DNA of 64,000 nucleotides, taken from NCBI RefSeq assembly GCF_007625075.1, contig NZ_QMIE01000001.1:1-64000 (forward strand), in the 5' to 3' direction. The notes beneath the pieces were generated by a model. That model did no database searches, had not been told where the DNA came from, and worked only from the letters and a program-made list of their open reading frames with translations. This document shows positions 18,709 to 26,095 of the stretch, one piece after another (positions within the stretch are counted from its first letter, which is position 1; every line of letters begins with the position of its first letter). The translations under genes were made by a program, and so were the position numbers. The stretch comes from Oceanidesulfovibrio indonesiensis. GTDB taxonomy: Bacteria > Desulfobacterota > Desulfovibrionia > Desulfovibrionales > Desulfovibrionaceae.

Positions 18709-21174
18709 TCAGACGGCCTCAGGATGTGCGTCCAGCACAGCCGGCAAGGTAACGACCACCCTCGTGCCGCCATCCTCGGGCTGCTCCAACACCAGGGCGC
18801 CGCGATGCTCGCTGACGATGGAGTTACAGATGGACAGGCCCAGGCCGGTTCCCTCGCCTTCCGGCTTCGTGGTGAAGAACGGGTCGAATATATCGTCGAG
18901 AAGGGCTGGATCGATTCCGCTGCCGCGGTCCTCCACCACGATGGCGACGGCAGGTTGCTGGCTGAGCGTGGTCATGGACGCCGAAATGCAGAGTCGTTTT
19001 TCCGGATCGGCGTAGGGGTGCCTTTCGTTCAGGGCGAACCGGGCGTTGGAGATGAGATTCATAAGAATCTGCTGCAATTCCCAGGTAATGCAGTCGGCGG
19101 ACGGAAGGTCGTCCGGGATGTCCAGCGCCAGGGTGATGCCCTCGCGAATCAGCCGCGGTTCCACGAGTTCGATGACGGAACGAACCGCTCCGAGCACTGA
19201 GCAGGGGGCCTTTTCCGAAGCGTGGCTGCGGGCGAACCCGAGCACGCCATGCGCAAGCCGGGCGATGCGTTCGCCTTCTGTGATGATCTTGTCGAGGAAT
19301 TGCGAGCCAGCCCCGTCCAGGCCGCCGTTGTCGTCGATCATGTCCAGCAGGACTTGCGCGTAGTTGATGATGCCGTTGACCGGGTTGTTAATCTCGTGGG
19401 CGAGGCCGGCTGCGAGTTCTCCGAGAGAGGCAAGCTGGCCGGTGCGTACGAGTTCTGCCTTGAGCTGCTTTTCACCGGTCAGGTCGATGCCCACGCCCAG
19501 CACGGCCGTGACCTGTCCCTCTGCGTCGCGCAAGGGAACGCGTATGATCCGCATCCAGCGCGTCTCTCCCTGGCAGTTCTGGAGCTTGTACTCGCCATCC
19601 GCACGATCGAGCGTTCCGGCATACAGGTCGTCCTCCGCGGCTCTGTAGGATTCGTCCTCGTAGACCATGGGCGCGAGTTCTCCGGGGGATCGTCCGAGCA
19701 ACTCCTCCTCGGTCCGTCCATGGAACCTGCAGGCGGCGGCATTTGCCAGCATAATCAGTCTGTTGCGGTCTCGGACGGTGATCATGTTGGGAACCGCTTC
19801 AATGACTTCCTTCAGAAACAGCCCCTGGGCCTTGATGGCCTGCTGCGCGCGGAGGCGCTCGCCGATGTCCCGCACGGCGGCGAGGCGCACGTCCTTTCCC
19901 TGCCAGGAGATGCGGCGCATGGATATTTCCACGGGAATGGGCGAACCGTCGCAATGGGTGTGGGTCTGGAAGAGCATGGCGGGCTCTTTGCCACGAGGCT
20001 TTCTATTGTACGGGAGCAGTGCAGACTGATGCACGAGATCCCCGAATTTCATGCCGAGGAGAAAGTCGCGCGAGTAGCCGTACATTTCCTCCGTGGCGGC
20101 GTTGGCCTCGAGTATGGTGTCTTCTGTATCATCGATAACGAAGATGGCGTCCGTTTCCAGCTCGAACAGTTGCTTGTACTTCTGCTCGGTTTCGCGGCGG
20201 TTGAGCTCCGCGCGTCGAAGCTCGCCCACATCCACGATGGTCCCCAGCATGCGCTTGGGGTCGGCGCCTTGCCATGAAACCACCATGGCGCGGCAGAAGA
20301 GGCGACGCCACTCGCCGTTCGGCAGGGCTATGCGCAACTCCGCTTCGAAACGATGATTTTTTCCCTCGATATGTTCCCGGTAGCTTTTCGCGAGGCGGTC
20401 GACGTCTTCGGGATGGATGCGGTTCCATAGCGTCGCAGTGTCGTCGATGCGCGTGGTCTCCCATCCGATCATGCGCGCAGCCGAATCGGACAGCAGCACG
20501 GTGCGGTTGATGATGTCGTAGTCCCACACGCCGTCCGTGGTGGCCTCCAGGGTTAGCCGCAGACGCTCTTCGCTCTCCTGCAGTACGTTCATGTCCTCGA
20601 AACGAACGATGGCGTTGGCCATCATTTCGGCCACTATCTGCAAGAGTTCCGTATCCGCCGGCTCCCATTCCCGCCGGCGGTGGACCATGTCGAACCCGAA
20701 AAAACCGACAAGCGCGCCGCGTCCGACCATGGGCACGAGCAGAAGCGACAGGATGTTCTGTTGCTCGAGTTCGTTGCGTTCCGCTTTCGCTTCCTCGGGC
20801 AGCTCCCGGACATACGGAACGAGCACAGGTTGCAGATTGAAAAGTTTCTCCTGAATCCAGGGAAACAGGCCGAAGGGGACATTCTGGAGCCTGTCTTTGA
20901 CTGGAGATATCCCGGCAGCGACCCATTCGTGGGTGTTCGTGAAGGTCTCGCATCGGGCATCGAGCAGCATGACGTATCCGCGATCCGCTTCCAGGAATTC
21001 ACCTGTTTCACGGATTGTCGCATTCAGGAGGCCATCCAGCGTCGCCCTGCGTTCGGCCGGGTCGCCCTGCGGCGTTGCGCCGGCGAAACGCCGCGAAATG
21101 AACGCAACGAGCGCTTCGAAGCCTATGCGATAGTCAATTCCGCGCCGTTTTTCGGAAACGAATTTGTCGTACAT
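18709..21174 (-). CDS. GAF/PAS sensor histidine kinase, orphan
   Basis: This 821-residue cytoplasmic kinase has a GAF-like domain (about 40-205), three PAS/PAC units (about 210-335, 340-455 and 465-580), a HisKA dimerisation domain with LAAGLAHEINNPVNGI, and an HATPase domain with N-box LMNLISNARFAL, G1 DRGSGIDP and G2 GEGTGLGLSIC. It should autophosphorylate on the HEINNP histidine. No response regulator is adjacent, so the partner is elsewhere. The ribosome-binding site before ATG at 21174 is poor. It diverges from the STAS gene at 21617. Confidence 0.93.
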   Translation of the reverse strand: MYDKFVSEKRRGIDYRIGFEALVAFISRRFAGATPQGDPAERRATLDGLLNATIRETGEFLEADRGYVMLLDARCETFTNTHEWVAAGISPVKDRLQNVPFGLFPWIQEKLFNLQPVLVPYVRELPEEAKAERNELEQQNILSLLLVPMVGRGALVGFFGFDMVHRRREWEPADTELLQIVAEMMANAIVRFEDMNVLQESEERLRLTLEATTDGVWDYDIINRTVLLSDSAARMIGWETTRIDDTATLWNRIHPEDVDRLAKSYREHIEGKNHRFEAELRIALPNGEWRRLFCRAMVVSWQGADPKRMLGTIVDVGELRRAELNRRETEQKYKQLFELETDAIFVIDDTEDTILEANAATEEMYGYSRDFLLGMKFGDLVHQSALLPYNRKPRGKEPAMLFQTHTHCDGSPIPVEISMRRISWQGKDVRLAAVRDIGERLRAQQAIKAQGLFLKEVIEAVPNMITVRDRNRLIMLANAAACRFHGRTEEELLGRSPGELAPMVYEDESYRAAEDDLYAGTLDRADGEYKLQNCQGETRWMRIIRVPLRDAEGQVTAVLGVGIDLTGEKQLKAELVRTGQLASLGELAAGLAHEINNPVNGIINYAQVLLDMIDDNGGLDGAGSQFLDKIITEGERIARLAHGVLGFARSHASEKAPCSVLGAVRSVIELVEPRLIREGITLALDIPDDLPSADCITWELQQILMNLISNARFALNERHPYADPEKRLCISASMTTLSQQPAVAIVVEDRGSGIDPALLDDIFDPFFTTKPEGEGTGLGLSICNSIVSEHRGALVLEQPEDGGTRVVVTLPAVLDAHPEAV

Positions 21175-21616
21175 TATGGCACTTCGATTGAGACTGGTTT
21201 ACGATTCGCACACATGATGCGCAGGCGGGATGTATAGCAGAGAGGGAATCGCCTTGAAAGGACTTTGGATATAGCGTTCCGGTTGACTTTCACGGCGCCT
21301 TCTCGCCATTGTAGGTTTTCGGATCGAGGGTCGTCCTGGTGTTGCTGTTTCGGATATTGCTTGGACCATGGAGGGTTTCGTCCTATGATCCACCCGGATC
21401 GGGCGCGGCTGCCCGAGCACGGGGAAGCGAAAACATTTCGTGGAGCGCATTGTTGTTCAGGCTGTGCTCCCGTGGCGTTTGCCGCGCGGCTTCGACGCGA
21501 AGGTGGCGATAACCATAACAGAGAAGCGGAACTGCAAGTAGTCTTTGCTTCCGGCAATAATGACAACCATTCCGGATTTTCCGCAATAGAACGCGATGTC
21601 CATGGAGGATATCGAG
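21175..21616. other. Divergent regulatory region
   Basis: These 440 bases separate the orphan kinase from the STAS/HATPase pair. No supported gene lies here. Promoters in both directions are expected; I found no pair of hexamers convincing enough to list. Confidence 0.45.
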
Positions 21617-22096
21617 ATGGCTTTTCTGGATAAGTTGCTTGGCAAAAAGCAGGACACGGTGTCTCCGCAAAGTTCCAGCGGAGTGCAGCAGACAACTTCT
21701 GGCGCGAGCGCCGTCTCGTCGGACGCTTCGTCGGAAGGCGCCTCGGCGTACACGCTGCGCGCCAAACGCGGACAGGACGGACAGGTCCTGCTTCTCGTTG
21801 TGGCCGGCAGGCTGGACGCTTTATCCTCGCCTGCGTTCGAAACCGAATGCGCGCGGTACCTGGCGCCCGGCGTCCAATACTGTATCATGGAATGCCAGGG
21901 GCTTACGTATCTTTCCAGTGCAGGGCTGCGTAGTCTGATGACGCTTTCCATGAGGCTCCGCTCCATGAACGCCGCCCTGGTCTTCAGCGGCCTGAACGAG
22001 AACGTGCGAGGCATTTTCCATTCGGCCGGCCTGCTCAAAATGTTCCCTGTCTACGTTTCCGTTGAAAAGGCTGTGCGCAGCATCCGGAAAGGGTAG
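21617..22096 (+). CDS. STAS-domain anti-sigma antagonist-like protein
   Basis: This 159-residue protein has a charged and Ser/Gln/Ala-rich leader of about 50 residues followed by an STAS domain. The domain shows VVAGRLDALSSPAFETE and CQGLTYLSSAGLRSLM; the serine pair in LSSAGLR is the expected phosphorylation site of RsbV/SpoIIAA-type antagonists. ATG at 21617 follows GGAGG (21604-21608) with good spacing and is preferred to the ATG at 21596. The HATPase gene starts three bases after the stop codon. Together with the PP2C phosphatase facing it from 25767, this makes a complete partner-switching set. Confidence 0.9.
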   Translation: MAFLDKLLGKKQDTVSPQSSSGVQQTTSGASAVSSDASSEGASAYTLRAKRGQDGQVLLLVVAGRLDALSSPAFETECARYLAPGVQYCIMECQGLTYLSSAGLRSLMTLSMRLRSMNAALVFSGLNENVRGIFHSAGLLKMFPVYVSVEKAVRSIRKG

Positions 22097-22099
22097 GCC

Positions 22100-22645
22100 A
22101 TGGTTCGGCGGCGCCGTTTTCCGGCAAAGCTGGAGAGCCTCCCCGAGGTGCGCGATTTCGTGTTGGGCGAGGCGTCCCGGGTCGGGCTCTCTGATGCCAG
22201 GATAATTGTTCTGGAACTCGTGCTCGAAGAGCTCGTCGTGAACATCGTGTCCTATGCGTACGCCTGTCCCGTGAACGGGCCGGATAACGCGTCGGAGCCA
22301 GCATGCGCGCCGATGGTGGTGCCTGTGGAGCAAACGCCGAACGACGCGCACCTGGATGTGCAATGCGGATCGTGCGCGGACGCACAGAAAATGCACGCGC
22401 CCATGGCCGACGCCATAGCCCGTTCCGGCATCGAGCCCGCCGATCTTTTCTGCGTGGTGCTGGAAGATTCCGGCATTGCATTCGACCCCCTGGCGGCGTC
22501 GCCGCCGAACCATCTGGATGAGGACCTGGAAACAAGACAATGCGGCGGGCTGGGCATCCACTTCGCCAAAGAGCGCTCCGCCGTGATGGCGTATGAGCGC
22601 GATGGCGGAAAGAACCGCCTCGGATTCGGCATACTGCGGCAATAG
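22100..22645 (+). CDS. RsbW/SpoIIAB-like HATPase with an insertion
   Basis: This 181-residue protein is a GHKL ATPase of the serine-kinase/anti-sigma type: N-box VLEELVVNIVSYAY (E43, E44, N48), G1 EDSGIAFDP (122-130) and G2 GGLGIHF (149-155). Between N-box and G1 lies an insertion of about 60 residues (57-116) holding four cysteines, twice what the fold needs. In family terms it should bind and phosphorylate the STAS protein and hold a target sigma factor or other partner. No sigma factor gene is adjacent, so the output is unknown. It is translationally close to the STAS gene and convergent with the phosphatase. Confidence 0.88.
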   Translation: MVRRRRFPAKLESLPEVRDFVLGEASRVGLSDARIIVLELVLEELVVNIVSYAYACPVNGPDNASEPACAPMVVPVEQTPNDAHLDVQCGSCADAQKMHAPMADAIARSGIEPADLFCVVLEDSGIAFDPLAASPPNHLDEDLETRQCGGLGIHFAKERSAVMAYERDGGKNRLGFGILRQ

Positions 22646-22677: not shown

Positions 22678-25600
22678 TCAGGACCTGCGATCGTCCTCGG
22701 CGTCTATGCCTCCAATCGCACTTTCATCAAGGTAGAGGTCATTGTACTCATCGCCTTCGGCGCCGATTTCCAGCTCGAAGTATCCGCTCTCGTCGGCGTC
22801 GTCGAGGGCGAACTCCACATCGGAATCCGGATACTGAGGATACACCGTCACGTCCGAATGGATGGAGATGAAGCTGCCCGGGTCATCGTGGGGTGCGAGC
22901 GACTGATCCTGAAGGTCGGGGTTCTGGGCGTACATATCGCCGGGGAGCGAAGGTATGAGCTCGAATCCACCTTCTTGCAGCGGTTCTTCCGAGTAACCGT
23001 CCGGAGCCGTGGGGCCGGGAGGCGGCAGGTCCTCGTCGAGCACCTCGTATTCATCCAGGTCGAGAGACAGCAGCGCCATGTCGTCGTCTGGTTCGAGCAT
23101 ATCTTCAGGATCGGCGGTCAACCGGAAATCGTCCAGGTTGGGCGGCTCCGGGATGCTGTCCTCGAACTCCCTGTCCGCAAGTGCGGCATCCGCGGAAAAG
23201 ATCGACTCGGGCAGATCCAGCGGCAGATCCTCGTCGACCTCCAGGTCTTCGAGCTCGTCGCCCAGGTACAGGGCGGATGTGACGTCGTCCGCTTCCGGAA
23301 TGTCGATGGTCCACTCCGGAGCGAGGTCCAGGAGTTCCTCTTCCTCCTCGATTTGCGCGTATGTCGTATCCGGCGATTCAAACATCGCGCCGTCGTTGTG
23401 CTCATTCGCGGGGATGAGAGCGATCGCCTCGTCGTCGGGTCCACGGGCGTAGCCATTCTCATCGATAGCCAGCTCGGGGGGGTGATCGGGAATGGGGAGT
23501 TTCGCGTACGCCCCTGTTGGTTCTTCGCGGATGTCGGCAGCGTCTGGCCCGGCTTCCCGTCTGCTGAAATCCGACGTCGTGTTCTGTGATGCATCGTCAT
23601 CCGAGAGTCCTGCCAGGGCTTGCGGCAGTGGATCTGATAGAGCCTGGCCGGGTTGCGAGTCGTCGCCCTCGTACTCGTGCGGCAGGAAAGGCGGCGCCGC
23701 ATGCGCCTGCGGACCATCTCCGGCTGATGCGACATGATCTTTGGCCTGATCCGGGCGCCTGAGCACAAGCAGCGTAATGTCGTCCGACTGCTCCGCCTCT
23801 TTCTCGTGGAGCTCAACCGCTTTGACGATGATCCTGCTCAGCAGTCTCGAAGTTTTTTCGAAATACCTGCCGGACACGAGTTCGAGCCTGCGCTCGCCGA
23901 ACAGGATGCGCGAGGGGCTCATGGCCTCGGTCACGCCGTCCGAATAGGCGATGATCGTATCGCCGGGTCCAATGGCGTGAACGTGCGTGCTGAACGAAGC
24001 TTCGGGCAGGATGCCGAGCATGGGGTCCTCGGTTATCGGCAGGTACTCTGTAGAGCCGTCGGCCCTGACCACGAGAGGCGGATTGTGGCCGCCGGCGGCA
24101 AACCGCAGATCGCCGTCATCGGTGTTCAGGATGCCCACGAACAGCGTGACGAACATTTGCGAGGCGTTGCCACGGCAGAGTTCTTCGTTGATTTCGAGCA
24201 GCATGCGTCCCGGGTCGGCCACCTGTCGCGTCTTGGATCTGAGAAGCGACATGGTGAGGGCCATGAAAAGCGCGGCGGGCACGCCTTTGCCGGACACGTC
24301 GCCCACGGCGAACAGGATGCGGCCGGGCCCGAGGCGTTCGTAATAGAAGAGGTCGCCACCGACCTCGCGCGCAGGGATGAGCAGGGCGTGCAGTTCGATG
24401 TCGTCATCGTCCAGGTGCGCCTCCGGCGCATTCGGCAGCATGTCCATCTGTATCGCGCGTGCAAGTTCCAGCTCATGATCGATGCGTTCGCGCTCCTTGG
24501 TGGCCTGGAGCAGGTTTGCGACATTCTCGCGCAGACTGGATTCCATGGTGCGCAGAGCCAGAGCCACGAGCCCCACTTCATCCCGGCGCTTTCTGGAAAG
24601 CTTGTGCAACTCGTTGCCGATATGAGTTTCCGGAGCGTTGAAATCCGAGGAGCCTATCTGCACGGCAAGGCCGGCGAGGCGTCTGAGCGGCTTGGCGATG
24701 CGGTCCACAAGGAAGGCCGTAAGGATGAAGGCGACCAGAAACACGACGCCGATGACGAGCGACTGGCGCAGGACGAGATGCTGGGCCGGAGCGGCCACCT
24801 CGGCCTGAAACGAGGCAACGCCGACGTACCAGTCCAGCGGAGCGTAGTGGAACACCCGTATGTCCACGGCGTGTTCCGCACCCTGGCCGTCCTTGACGCT
24901 CATGGTGAGCGGGTTGGATTTGTTTCCCACCGCGGCGATGATGGATGCGAGGGAGCCAGTGGACACCACGTCGGCCACGGCATCGTCCATGGGAAAGGGG
25001 CGTTCCGGCGGCGCTACGAGCAGGTGGCCTGCGCCGTCGAAGACAAATGCAAAACCCGAGTCGGCGATGCGCACTTCGCGCAGGCTCTGGCCGAGGATCG
25101 TCAAGGCGTTCTCAAGGCGGCGGGCCTCTTCGCGCTCCACATCCGCTATGTCCACGCCCGTGGACAGCACCCAGTCGAACCCGGGCACCTCCGCGAAATA
25201 GCCGATCAGGCGCGCCTGCGCATCGGAGTTGGTACGCGGCGCGTGGAAGACGCTGTATGCGCTGCCGTAGGTTCTGGCCTCGTCGCGCATGCTGGCCAGC
25301 AGGGGCCGGCCCTTGATGTCCTCCACGCCGGAGAGACTGCCGAGGCCGGGGCCGAAGTTTCGGGCCAGTGGCCGCAAGCGTGCATCATAAAGGAGGAAGT
25401 ACGCCTTTTCGCCGAGTTTCAACCCGCGTATCCAGTCGAGAGCCTGCTGCTGCGCTTCAGCTGGTGACAGCACGCCGCGTTCGGCAAGGGTCGCGAACTC
25501 CGTCAGCCCGTCCATGGCCATGTCGGCAGATTCGGCAAGGCGCTGCTTGTGGTCGGTAACGGTCTCCACCCGGTTGGAGAGGAGGTTGCGGTAAGTGGTT

Positions 25601-25767
25601 TCGACCGTGTGGCGGACGAGTTGAAGCACGTTGTCCGCGGAACGGGACTCGGCGCGCTCCGAGAGAGTACGGACGTCCTGCATGCCGATGAGAATGACGC
25701 AGGCCGCCGTGGCGGCGAGGATCGCGACAAGCAGCGCGAGAAGTTTGCCTTTGAGAGATCTGGTCAT
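22678..25767 (-). CDS. Cache-HAMP-PP2C phosphatase with long acidic tail
   Basis: This protein of about 1029 residues has an N-terminal membrane segment (about 10-30), a periplasmic Cache sensor (to about 325, including KAYFLLYDARLRPLARNF and FDWVLSTGVDIADV), a second membrane segment (about 335-360), a HAMP-like linker, and a SpoIIE/RsbU phosphatase (about 450-670) with FAVGDVSGKGVPAALFM and YSDGVTEA. Past LLVLRRPDQ there are about 355 further residues that hold, by hand count, 58 Asp and 42 Glu against 10 Lys/Arg, with no recognisable domain. The convergent STAS/HATPase pair ends 32 bases away. The start is inferred from the membrane segment; no strong ribosome-binding site is seen. Confidence 0.92.
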   Translation of the reverse strand: MTRSLKGKLLALLVAILAATAACVILIGMQDVRTLSERAESRSADNVLQLVRHTVETTYRNLLSNRVETVTDHKQRLAESADMAMDGLTEFATLAERGVLSPAEAQQQALDWIRGLKLGEKAYFLLYDARLRPLARNFGPGLGSLSGVEDIKGRPLLASMRDEARTYGSAYSVFHAPRTNSDAQARLIGYFAEVPGFDWVLSTGVDIADVEREEARRLENALTILGQSLREVRIADSGFAFVFDGAGHLLVAPPERPFPMDDAVADVVSTGSLASIIAAVGNKSNPLTMSVKDGQGAEHAVDIRVFHYAPLDWYVGVASFQAEVAAPAQHLVLRQSLVIGVVFLVAFILTAFLVDRIAKPLRRLAGLAVQIGSSDFNAPETHIGNELHKLSRKRRDEVGLVALALRTMESSLRENVANLLQATKERERIDHELELARAIQMDMLPNAPEAHLDDDDIELHALLIPAREVGGDLFYYERLGPGRILFAVGDVSGKGVPAALFMALTMSLLRSKTRQVADPGRMLLEINEELCRGNASQMFVTLFVGILNTDDGDLRFAAGGHNPPLVVRADGSTEYLPITEDPMLGILPEASFSTHVHAIGPGDTIIAYSDGVTEAMSPSRILFGERRLELVSGRYFEKTSRLLSRIIVKAVELHEKEAEQSDDITLLVLRRPDQAKDHVASAGDGPQAHAAPPFLPHEYEGDDSQPGQALSDPLPQALAGLSDDDASQNTTSDFSRREAGPDAADIREEPTGAYAKLPIPDHPPELAIDENGYARGPDDEAIALIPANEHNDGAMFESPDTTYAQIEEEEELLDLAPEWTIDIPEADDVTSALYLGDELEDLEVDEDLPLDLPESIFSADAALADREFEDSIPEPPNLDDFRLTADPEDMLEPDDDMALLSLDLDEYEVLDEDLPPPGPTAPDGYSEEPLQEGGFELIPSLPGDMYAQNPDLQDQSLAPHDDPGSFISIHSDVTVYPQYPDSDVEFALDDADESGYFELEIGAEGDEYNDLYLDESAIGGIDAEDDRRS

Positions 25768-26095
25768 TCGTTTGCGGCGGCTGTACCGAACTCCGTGTGC
25801 AAAAATGCGCATCCCCGCGTCAAACCGAAAGAAAGTCGATATCTCTTTAGCATCCGGGCGTTACTCTTGACAATCGTTAAAATGCAAGACGCGATGCTTC
25901 GTGGTATGTGCATCGAGAAAGCGGCTTCGGGCGTTTCGGCGAACCTGCGCCACGGCACCCGCGCTGAGAGAATGGGATCGCGTCCGGCCGATCCGCAGCC
26001 GTGTTGACAGGCTTCATCGTCGGGACATACATCCGCGTGGTGGCAACGCGTCTGGTAGACGGCGTTTTCTATTTGCGAGATACATTTTAGGAGAC
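25768..26095. other. Divergent intergenic region
   Basis: These 328 bases lie between the acidic-tail phosphatase and a small membrane protein gene. TTGACA occurs near 25867 on the plus strand but lacks a fitting -10 hexamer. No gene is supported here. Confidence 0.4.

What the first reader, a model, noticed from the sequence alone, without database searches (positions are those of the whole stretch)
22678..23750. Acidic tail of about 355 residues on a PP2C phosphatase
After the phosphatase domain the protein runs on with 100 Asp/Glu and 10 Lys/Arg in about 355 residues, with short repeats of Asp-Leu/Glu-Leu and Pro. No domain is recognisable. It could bind a basic partner, act as a calcium/metal buffer, tether the protein, or mask the catalytic domain.
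Basis: seen in the sequence. Interest (0 to 1): 0.7.

Follow-up and report, generated by a model that had tools for sequence, protein, structure and literature searches.

The report
Phosphatase with conserved acidic disordered tail
A membrane-bound bacterial signalling phosphatase carries a long, negatively charged, probably unfolded tail whose last 215 residues are kept about as well as its sensor part in the one sister genome that could be compared, which suggests that the tail grips a partner protein, although this has not been tested.

Summary
Minus-strand ORF 22678-25812 encodes Cache, HAMP-like and SpoIIE/PPM phosphatase regions, then 358 residues with 101 D/E and 10 K/R. It is not a frameshift artefact: the syntenic gene in the one same-genus genome the searches listed has a 477-residue tail (146 D/E, 14 K/R). 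The tail has two parts: a spacer (687-829; 143 vs 264 residues, 32% identical) and a conserved segment (830-1044; 215 vs 213 residues, 57% identical; Cache 56%, phosphatase 74%) with an identical 19-mer. Pfam, NCBIfam and PDB gave no credible relative. Of 69 SpoIIE C-termini read in relatives, only these two have the tail; 64 end within 22 residues and 3 carry a fused RsbW-type kinase domain. By sequence the tail is in 2 of 288 family genomes. STAS and RsbW-like kinase genes lie next door; the STAS protein is unusually basic and has an N-terminal extension seen only in this genus. Best reading: a disordered arm that recruits a switch partner, most simply the basic STAS substrate. Partner binding is inferred, and four of 37 other STAS proteins are as basic as the sister species' one, at least one of them beside a tail-less phosphatase. 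New variant of a known kind.

The parts
22678..25812 (-). Whole phosphatase gene: Cache + HAMP-like + SpoIIE/PPM + acidic tail, 1044 aa
   Evidence: ORF and translation; Pfam
24778..25674 (-). Cache sensor region, residues 47-345
   Evidence: PF08269 dCache_2 66.0 bits over 47-338, PF17200 sCache_2 80.7 bits, PF17201 38.3 bits over 235-345
24544..24711 (-). HAMP-like segment, residues 368-423
   Evidence: PF00672 21.7 bits, below its cut-off of 25
23755..24327 (-). SpoIIE/PPM phosphatase domain, residues 496-686
   Evidence: PF07228 162.4 bits; motifs GGD, GDVSGKG, SDGVTE, QSDD present (that these are the metal-site motifs is recalled)
23326..23754 (-). Variable acidic spacer of the tail, residues 687-829
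   Evidence: 43 of 134 aligned residues identical to G001; 143 vs 264 residues long
22681..23325 (-). Conserved acidic C-terminal segment of the tail, residues 830-1044
   Evidence: 120 of 212 aligned residues identical to G001; 215 vs 213 residues long
23101..23157 (-). Identical 19-residue run SIPEPPNLDDFRLTADPED, residues 886-904
   Evidence: longest identical run in the tail between the two species
22100..22645 (+). RsbW-like kinase gene (HATPase_c_2), convergent with the phosphatase gene
   Evidence: PF13581 52.4 bits; syntenic in G001, 53% identical
21596..22096 (+). STAS gene, basic product, candidate substrate and partner
   Evidence: PF01740 57.9 bits; TIGR00377 54.1 bits, cut-off 53.45; pI 9.5 from the conserved start; syntenic in G001, 69% identical
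21617..21649 (+). STAS N-terminal peptide MAFLDKLLGKK, identical in G001
   Evidence: translations; once in own genome; short helix in a low-confidence model

Best explanation
A SiaA/RsbU-like, membrane-anchored, Cache-sensing PPM phosphatase of a partner-switching module with a disordered acidic arm at its C-terminus. A variable spacer (687-829) carries a conserved 215-residue segment (830-1044) that acts as a recruiting arm. The most economical partner is the unusually basic STAS protein encoded next door, which would be the substrate: the arm would concentrate phospho-STAS near the catalytic domain and so raise the speed or specificity of dephosphorylation once the Cache region senses its signal. 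Shown: domain content, tail composition, conservation in two parts, gene neighbourhood, basic STAS. Inferred: disorder in the cell, partner binding (about 0.6 for some partner), STAS as the partner (about 0.3), effect on catalysis.
For: Last 215 residues conserved at the level of the Cache region (57% vs 56%), prolines 19 of 22 and F/W/Y 12 of 17 identical, a 19-residue identical run, almost equal length, while the spacer drifts in sequence and length. NG86 dN/dS about 0.29 for 830-1044, 0.21 for SpoIIE, 0.43 for Cache. Charge-hydropathy on the disordered side; single-sequence AF2 mean pLDDT 48. STAS and RsbW-like genes adjacent and syntenic. STAS net charge +4 and +3 on the aligned core, median -2 in 37 others. 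STAS N-extension with an invariant peptide on a variable linker, seen only in this genus among the listed matches. In 3 of 69 relatives the same end of the phosphatase carries a fused RsbW-type kinase domain.
Against: No binding was tested. Tail and STAS extension are known from one lineage (two genomes), so their co-occurrence is a single event. Four of 37 other STAS cores have net charge +3 (L006, L054, L064, L072); the one of G016 lies beside a phosphatase that ends 5 residues after SpoIIE. The RsbW-like neighbour is acidic, pI 4.8 and 4.6, so charge does not favour it as partner. The STAS extension as a whole is acidic. Published PPM-STAS docking uses loops of the phosphatase domain; the terms disordered, acidic and electrostatic do not occur in that paper's held text (PMC11418112). 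The AF2 model used no alignment.
Confidence: 0.4

Rival explanations
1. Localisation or condensate region: the acidic, proline-containing tail places the phosphatase at a pole or in a cluster through a scaffold protein, like the proline- and acid-rich disordered regions of Caulobacter SpmX and PopZ.
For: Tail has 101 D/E and 39 P in 358 residues. [quoted passage not shown] Conserved hydrophobic and aromatic positions in 830-1044 would suit scaffold binding.
Against: No scaffold gene was looked for, and no localisation data exist here. Composition alone is a weak criterion.
Confidence: 0.2
2. Autoinhibitory or metal-binding tail: the acidic tail folds back on the phosphatase domain, or binds its metal ions or calcium, and so tunes activity.
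For: High density of D/E on a phosphatase of a metal-dependent family (recalled).
Against: No known calcium or metal domain in Pfam or NCBIfam. The 143- vs 264-residue spacer does not call for a fixed intramolecular fit, though it does not exclude one.
Confidence: 0.15
3. The conserved segment recruits another basic partner not encoded nearby, such as a sigma factor, RNA polymerase or another output protein.
For: Conservation of 830-1044 fits any specific partner; no sigma factor was identified among the neighbouring genes that I scanned (8 sequences).
Against: Nothing points to a given partner; own-genome sigma factors were not searched.
Confidence: 0.15
4. A near-neutral acidic appendage without function beyond solubility.
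For: Seen only in this genus; the spacer drifts freely in sequence and length.
Against: The last 215 residues are as conserved as the Cache region and include a 19-residue identical run.
Confidence: 0.08

Closest known systems
SiaA of Pseudomonas aeruginosa (NCBIfam NF038263)
   Same: Best-scoring NCBIfam model, matched over residues 322-685 (66.6 bits). SiaA has two membrane spans, HAMP and a PP2C domain and acts on SiaC with the kinase SiaB (PMC7647112, passages).
   Different: Score far below the cut-off of 700. The SiaA construct described ends at residue 663 with PP2C at 453-662, so there is no tail.
RsbU/SpoIIE-type PPM phosphatases with STAS substrates
   Same: SpoIIE domain PF07228 over its cut-off, STAS and RsbW-like genes adjacent.
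   Different: Described specificity comes from three loops of the phosphatase domain (PMC11418112, abstract and passages). 64 of 69 relatives' proteins that I read end within 22 residues of the domain.
SpoIIE proteins with a fused HATPase_c_2 domain (L025, L038, L089)
   Same: An extra part attached at the same C-terminal end.
   Different: Folded kinase domain (63.7 to 83.1 bits), not an acidic disordered tail.
Acidic, proline-rich disordered regions of SpmX and PopZ (Caulobacter)
   Same: Acidic and proline-containing disordered region serving signalling enzymes (PMC8849385, passages).
   Different: Different proteins; here the region is fused to the enzyme and its C-terminal part is conserved in sequence between species. 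No sequence comparison with SpmX or PopZ was made.

Membership tests
SpoIIE/PPM phosphatase (PF07228) | SpoIIE domain over the curated cut-off | tested here: met
   162.4 bits, cut-off 25
SpoIIE/PPM phosphatase (PF07228) | Metal-site motifs present (which residues bind metal is recalled) | tested here: met
   GGD at 485, GDVSGKG at 504, SDGVTE at 624, QSDD at 675
SpoIIE/PPM phosphatase (PF07228) | Dephosphorylates a protein substrate | not testable with these tools
   needs an enzyme assay
SiaA (NCBIfam NF038263 equivalog) | Score over the curated cut-off | tested here: not met
   66.6 bits, cut-off 700
Partner-switching module (RsbU-RsbV-RsbW type) | PPM phosphatase, STAS and HATPase_c_2 kinase genes together | tested here: met
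   adjacent genes, syntenic in G001
Partner-switching module (RsbU-RsbV-RsbW type) | STAS protein over the cut-off of anti-sigma factor antagonists (TIGR00377) | tested here: met
   54.1 bits, cut-off 53.45, a narrow pass
Partner-switching module (RsbU-RsbV-RsbW type) | Kinase over the cut-off of an RsbW equivalog | tested here: not met
   best RsbW model 16.5 bits, cut-off 145; RsbA_anti_sig 20.7 bits, cut-off 210
Partner-switching module (RsbU-RsbV-RsbW type) | Controls a sigma factor | not tested
   no sigma-factor search was run
Acidic, proline-rich condensate-forming IDR (SpmX/PopZ kind) | Disordered, acidic, proline-containing | tested here: inconclusive
   composition fits; disorder only from charge-hydropathy and a single-sequence model
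Acidic, proline-rich condensate-forming IDR (SpmX/PopZ kind) | Forms condensates or localises at a pole | not testable with these tools
   needs imaging or an in vitro phase-separation assay

The most novel reading that the evidence does not exclude
A PPM phosphatase that captures its STAS substrate through a long disordered acidic arm in addition to the known loop docking, the arm having co-evolved with a basic STAS core and a new STAS N-terminal peptide within one genus: a tethered, disordered counterpart of the kinase fusions that other lineages carry at the same end of the phosphatase.
Probability: 0.25. Interest if true: 0.6.

Novelty: new variant of a known kind. Interest (0 to 1): 0.4.

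Why it matters
How protein phosphatases choose their substrates is called a major outstanding question in the abstract of PMC11418112, and the answer given there lies inside the folded PPM domain. A disordered arm with a conserved recognition segment would be a second, separable way to set specificity, and it is easy to test because it can simply be cut off. The restriction to one genus, and the kinase fusions at the same place in relatives, give a clear evolutionary comparison.

Tried and rejected
Known folded domain in the tail: not found in Pfam (E<=1), NCBIfam, or the PDB by phmmer. A PDB search with the two-sequence profile gave Scone-E (E 0.0027) and Scone-R (E 0.28); the printed alignments fall apart into repeated stretches of under 3 bits each, none significant alone, so I took them as chance. 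The one hit outside the genus in the phylum sample, G554 (E 0.0014 over 51 profile positions), lies by eye in a 749-aa ORF without an acidic tail; I took it as chance. Frameshift artefact: rejected. A second copy of the conserved segment in the own genome: none (next best E 2.8). Asp-Leu/Glu-Leu repeats: not above shuffles.

STAS extension as the basic part: rejected; the extension as a whole is acidic (pI 4.7 and 5.1) and the basic charge is in the STAS core. EF-hand-like spacing near the C-terminus: considered by eye and dropped because the loop's last position does not fit the consensus that I recall. Plasmid collection: no match to the tail. The first family search, PF13672, found three other genes of the genome and not this one; the gene belongs to PF07228. 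Solved structures nearest to the phosphatase part at E<=1e-6: 3ke6 (Rv1364c), 3es2 and 3eq2; none covers the tail.

Papers: nine searches of the held PMC library. Seven asked about tails, extensions or partner switching of SpoIIE/PP2C phosphatases; two gave no paper, and no title listed by the other five is about such a tail (of the 15 papers that fit, ten were listed). Subscription literature is mostly not held, so this is no proof of absence.

Limits: one sister genome only, so conservation is a two-sequence comparison. The acidity comparison is a sample (window plus 200 kb of 4.29 Mb) with proteins predicted by a simple script. dS above 1 is near saturation; the YN00 estimate failed for four of five regions. 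The 72 SpoIIE loci are best matches from a capped list, not a random draw; 3 of the 72 (L093, L094, L098) gave no alignment reaching the end and were dropped. The STAS match list is also capped. One search dropped alignments shorter than 85 residues or with stops.

Full report
The finding is real. The minus-strand ORF 22678-25812 (1044 aa) matches Cache families over residues 47-345, a HAMP-like segment below its cut-off (368-423, 21.7 bits against 25) and the SpoIIE/PPM phosphatase domain (496-686, 162.4 bits against 25) in Pfam. The phosphatase motifs GGD, GDVSGKG, SDGVTE and QSDD are present. Residues 687-1044, 358 in all, hold 101 D/E and 10 K/R. Among proteins predicted by a simple script from the window and ten 20-kb stretches of the same genome, this one has the most acidic 200-residue stretch (148 proteins long enough) and 350-residue stretch (94); over 100 residues (184 proteins) one other protein is more acidic.

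It is not an artefact. One other genome of the genus, G001, was listed by the searches, and it has the gene in a syntenic neighbourhood. Its ORF has 1150 aa, and its tail has 477 residues with 146 D/E and 14 K/R. Aligning the two shows a tail in two parts. Residues 687-829 are a spacer: 43 of 134 aligned residues are identical, the length is 143 against 264 residues, and none of 7 aromatic residues is kept. Residues 830-1044 are conserved: 120 of 212 aligned residues are identical (57%), the length is 215 against 213, and 19 of 22 prolines and 12 of 17 F/W/Y are identical. For comparison, the Cache region is 56% identical (167 of 299) and the phosphatase domain 74% (142 of 191). A run of 19 residues, SIPEPPNLDDFRLTADPED (886-904), is identical; the longest run in residues 1-686 is 21. 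NG86 gives dN 0.33 and dS 1.14 for 830-1044, 0.18 and 0.86 for the phosphatase domain, 0.36 and 0.84 for Cache, and 0.79 and 2.40 for the spacer (dS above 1 is near saturation). So sequence, and not charge alone, is kept in the last 215 residues.

No known domain was found in the tail: 0 Pfam families at E<=1, 0 NCBIfam, 0 PDB chains by phmmer. A profile of the two C-terminal segments matched the repeat proteins Scone-E and Scone-R in the PDB, but only as sums of stretches under 3 bits. A charge-hydropathy calculation puts both tails on the disordered side (-0.23 and -0.21, against +0.16 for Cache and +0.23 for SpoIIE). A single-sequence AlphaFold2 model has mean pLDDT 48 and pTM 0.18, with one low-confidence pair of strands. 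This agrees with disorder but is weak evidence, because no alignment was used.

The tail is confined to the genus as far as seen. The tail alone was found in 2 of 288 genomes of the family. The profile of the conserved part was found in the own genome and in one chance-like match among 395 genomes drawn over the phylum, and nowhere else in the own genome (next best E 2.8). Since disordered sequence diverges fast, I also read the C-termini directly. Two have the acidic tail, 64 end within 22 residues of the domain, and 3 (L025, L038, L089) continue for 143-162 residues, which Pfam identifies as HATPase_c_2, the RsbW-type kinase domain, in all three. In a tree of 36 sequences the tailed pair sits on its own long stem in a clade of 18, with 100/100 support for both the clade and the pair. 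The other 16, which include the tail-less paralogue of each genome of the genus, have tails of 15 residues or fewer. Six of 33 inner branches of that tree are open, so the nearest relatives of the pair are unsettled.

The neighbourhood suggests the pathway. A STAS gene (21596-22096) and a HATPase_c_2 kinase gene (22100-22645) lie next to the phosphatase and convergent with it; both are syntenic in G001, 69% and 53% identical. This is the gene set of a partner-switching module, in which the PPM phosphatase dephosphorylates the STAS protein (PMC11418112, abstract). The kinase does not reach any RsbW equivalog cut-off, and the STAS protein passes the TIGR00377 cut-off narrowly (54.1 against 53.45). 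The best-scoring named phosphatase model is SiaA, at 66.6 bits against a cut-off of 700. The SiaA described ends at residue 663 with its PP2C domain at 453-662 (PMC7647112, passages), so it has no tail.

The STAS protein is the natural candidate partner. From the conserved start its calculated pI is 9.5 and 8.8 in the two species, and the charge lies in the STAS core (pI 9.8 and 9.4). On the same aligned stretch its net charge is +4 and +3, against a median of -2 in 37 other STAS proteins, none of which reaches +4. Against this reading, four of those 37 have +3 (L006, L054, L064, L072). The one of G016 (L064) lies beside a phosphatase that ends 5 residues after SpoIIE, so a basic STAS does not need an acidic tail. 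The RsbW-like protein is acidic (pI 4.8 and 4.6). The genus also has a STAS N-terminal extension: MAFLDKLLGKK, identical in both species, followed by a variable linker. Among the listed matches for 207 of 288 family genomes (a capped list), no other reaches the part of the query that holds this peptide, apart from one that begins inside it (residue 16) and contains stops. The peptide pattern occurs once in the own genome. A single-sequence model gives a short helix there, at low confidence. It could equally be a membrane-binding helix, and the extension as a whole is acidic.

Best reading: a disordered acidic arm that recruits a partner of the switch, most simply the basic STAS substrate, at the end of the protein where some relatives carry a fused kinase domain. 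The sequence shows the arm, its two parts and its conservation; binding and effect on catalysis are inferred. The work on Bacillus SpoIIE and RsbU explains specificity by three loops of the phosphatase domain (PMC11418112, abstract and passages), so an arm would be an addition and not a replacement. The rival that deserves most attention is localisation or condensate formation, as for the acidic, proline-rich regions of SpmX and PopZ (PMC8849385, passages).

Verdict: observation confirmed, interpretation partly supported, new variant of a known kind, moderate interest.

Noticed in passing
L082:8573-10021 (-), same genome (G000:C3): A second strongly acidic protein, 482 aa with no Pfam match at E<=0.1; its most acidic 200 residues (from residue 275) are 35% D/E and 4% K/R. 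It is the only sampled protein more acidic than the tail over 100 residues.
   Followed up: partly
window 21617-21649 (+): STAS N-terminal peptide MAFLDKLLGKK, identical in both species on an otherwise variable extension; most other STAS relatives read are about 109 aa and lack it.
   Followed up: partly
L025, L038, L089: SpoIIE phosphatases with a HATPase_c_2 (RsbW-type) domain fused at the C-terminus, so that phosphatase and kinase of the switch are one chain.
   Followed up: partly
window 25765-25812 (-): The phosphatase probably starts at the second ATG (residue 16, MTRSLKGK), because the listed ORF in G001 starts MRMTRSLKGK.
   Followed up: no
window 18709-21174 (-): A GAF, multi-PAS, HisKA, HATPase histidine kinase lies beside the module and is syntenic in G001.
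   Followed up: no
L042:5445-7496 (-), same genome (G000:C2): A tail-less Cache-HAMP-SpoIIE paralogue (683 aa, 36% identical) lies close to a PP2C_2 gene (G000:C2:254853-255434).
   Followed up: no
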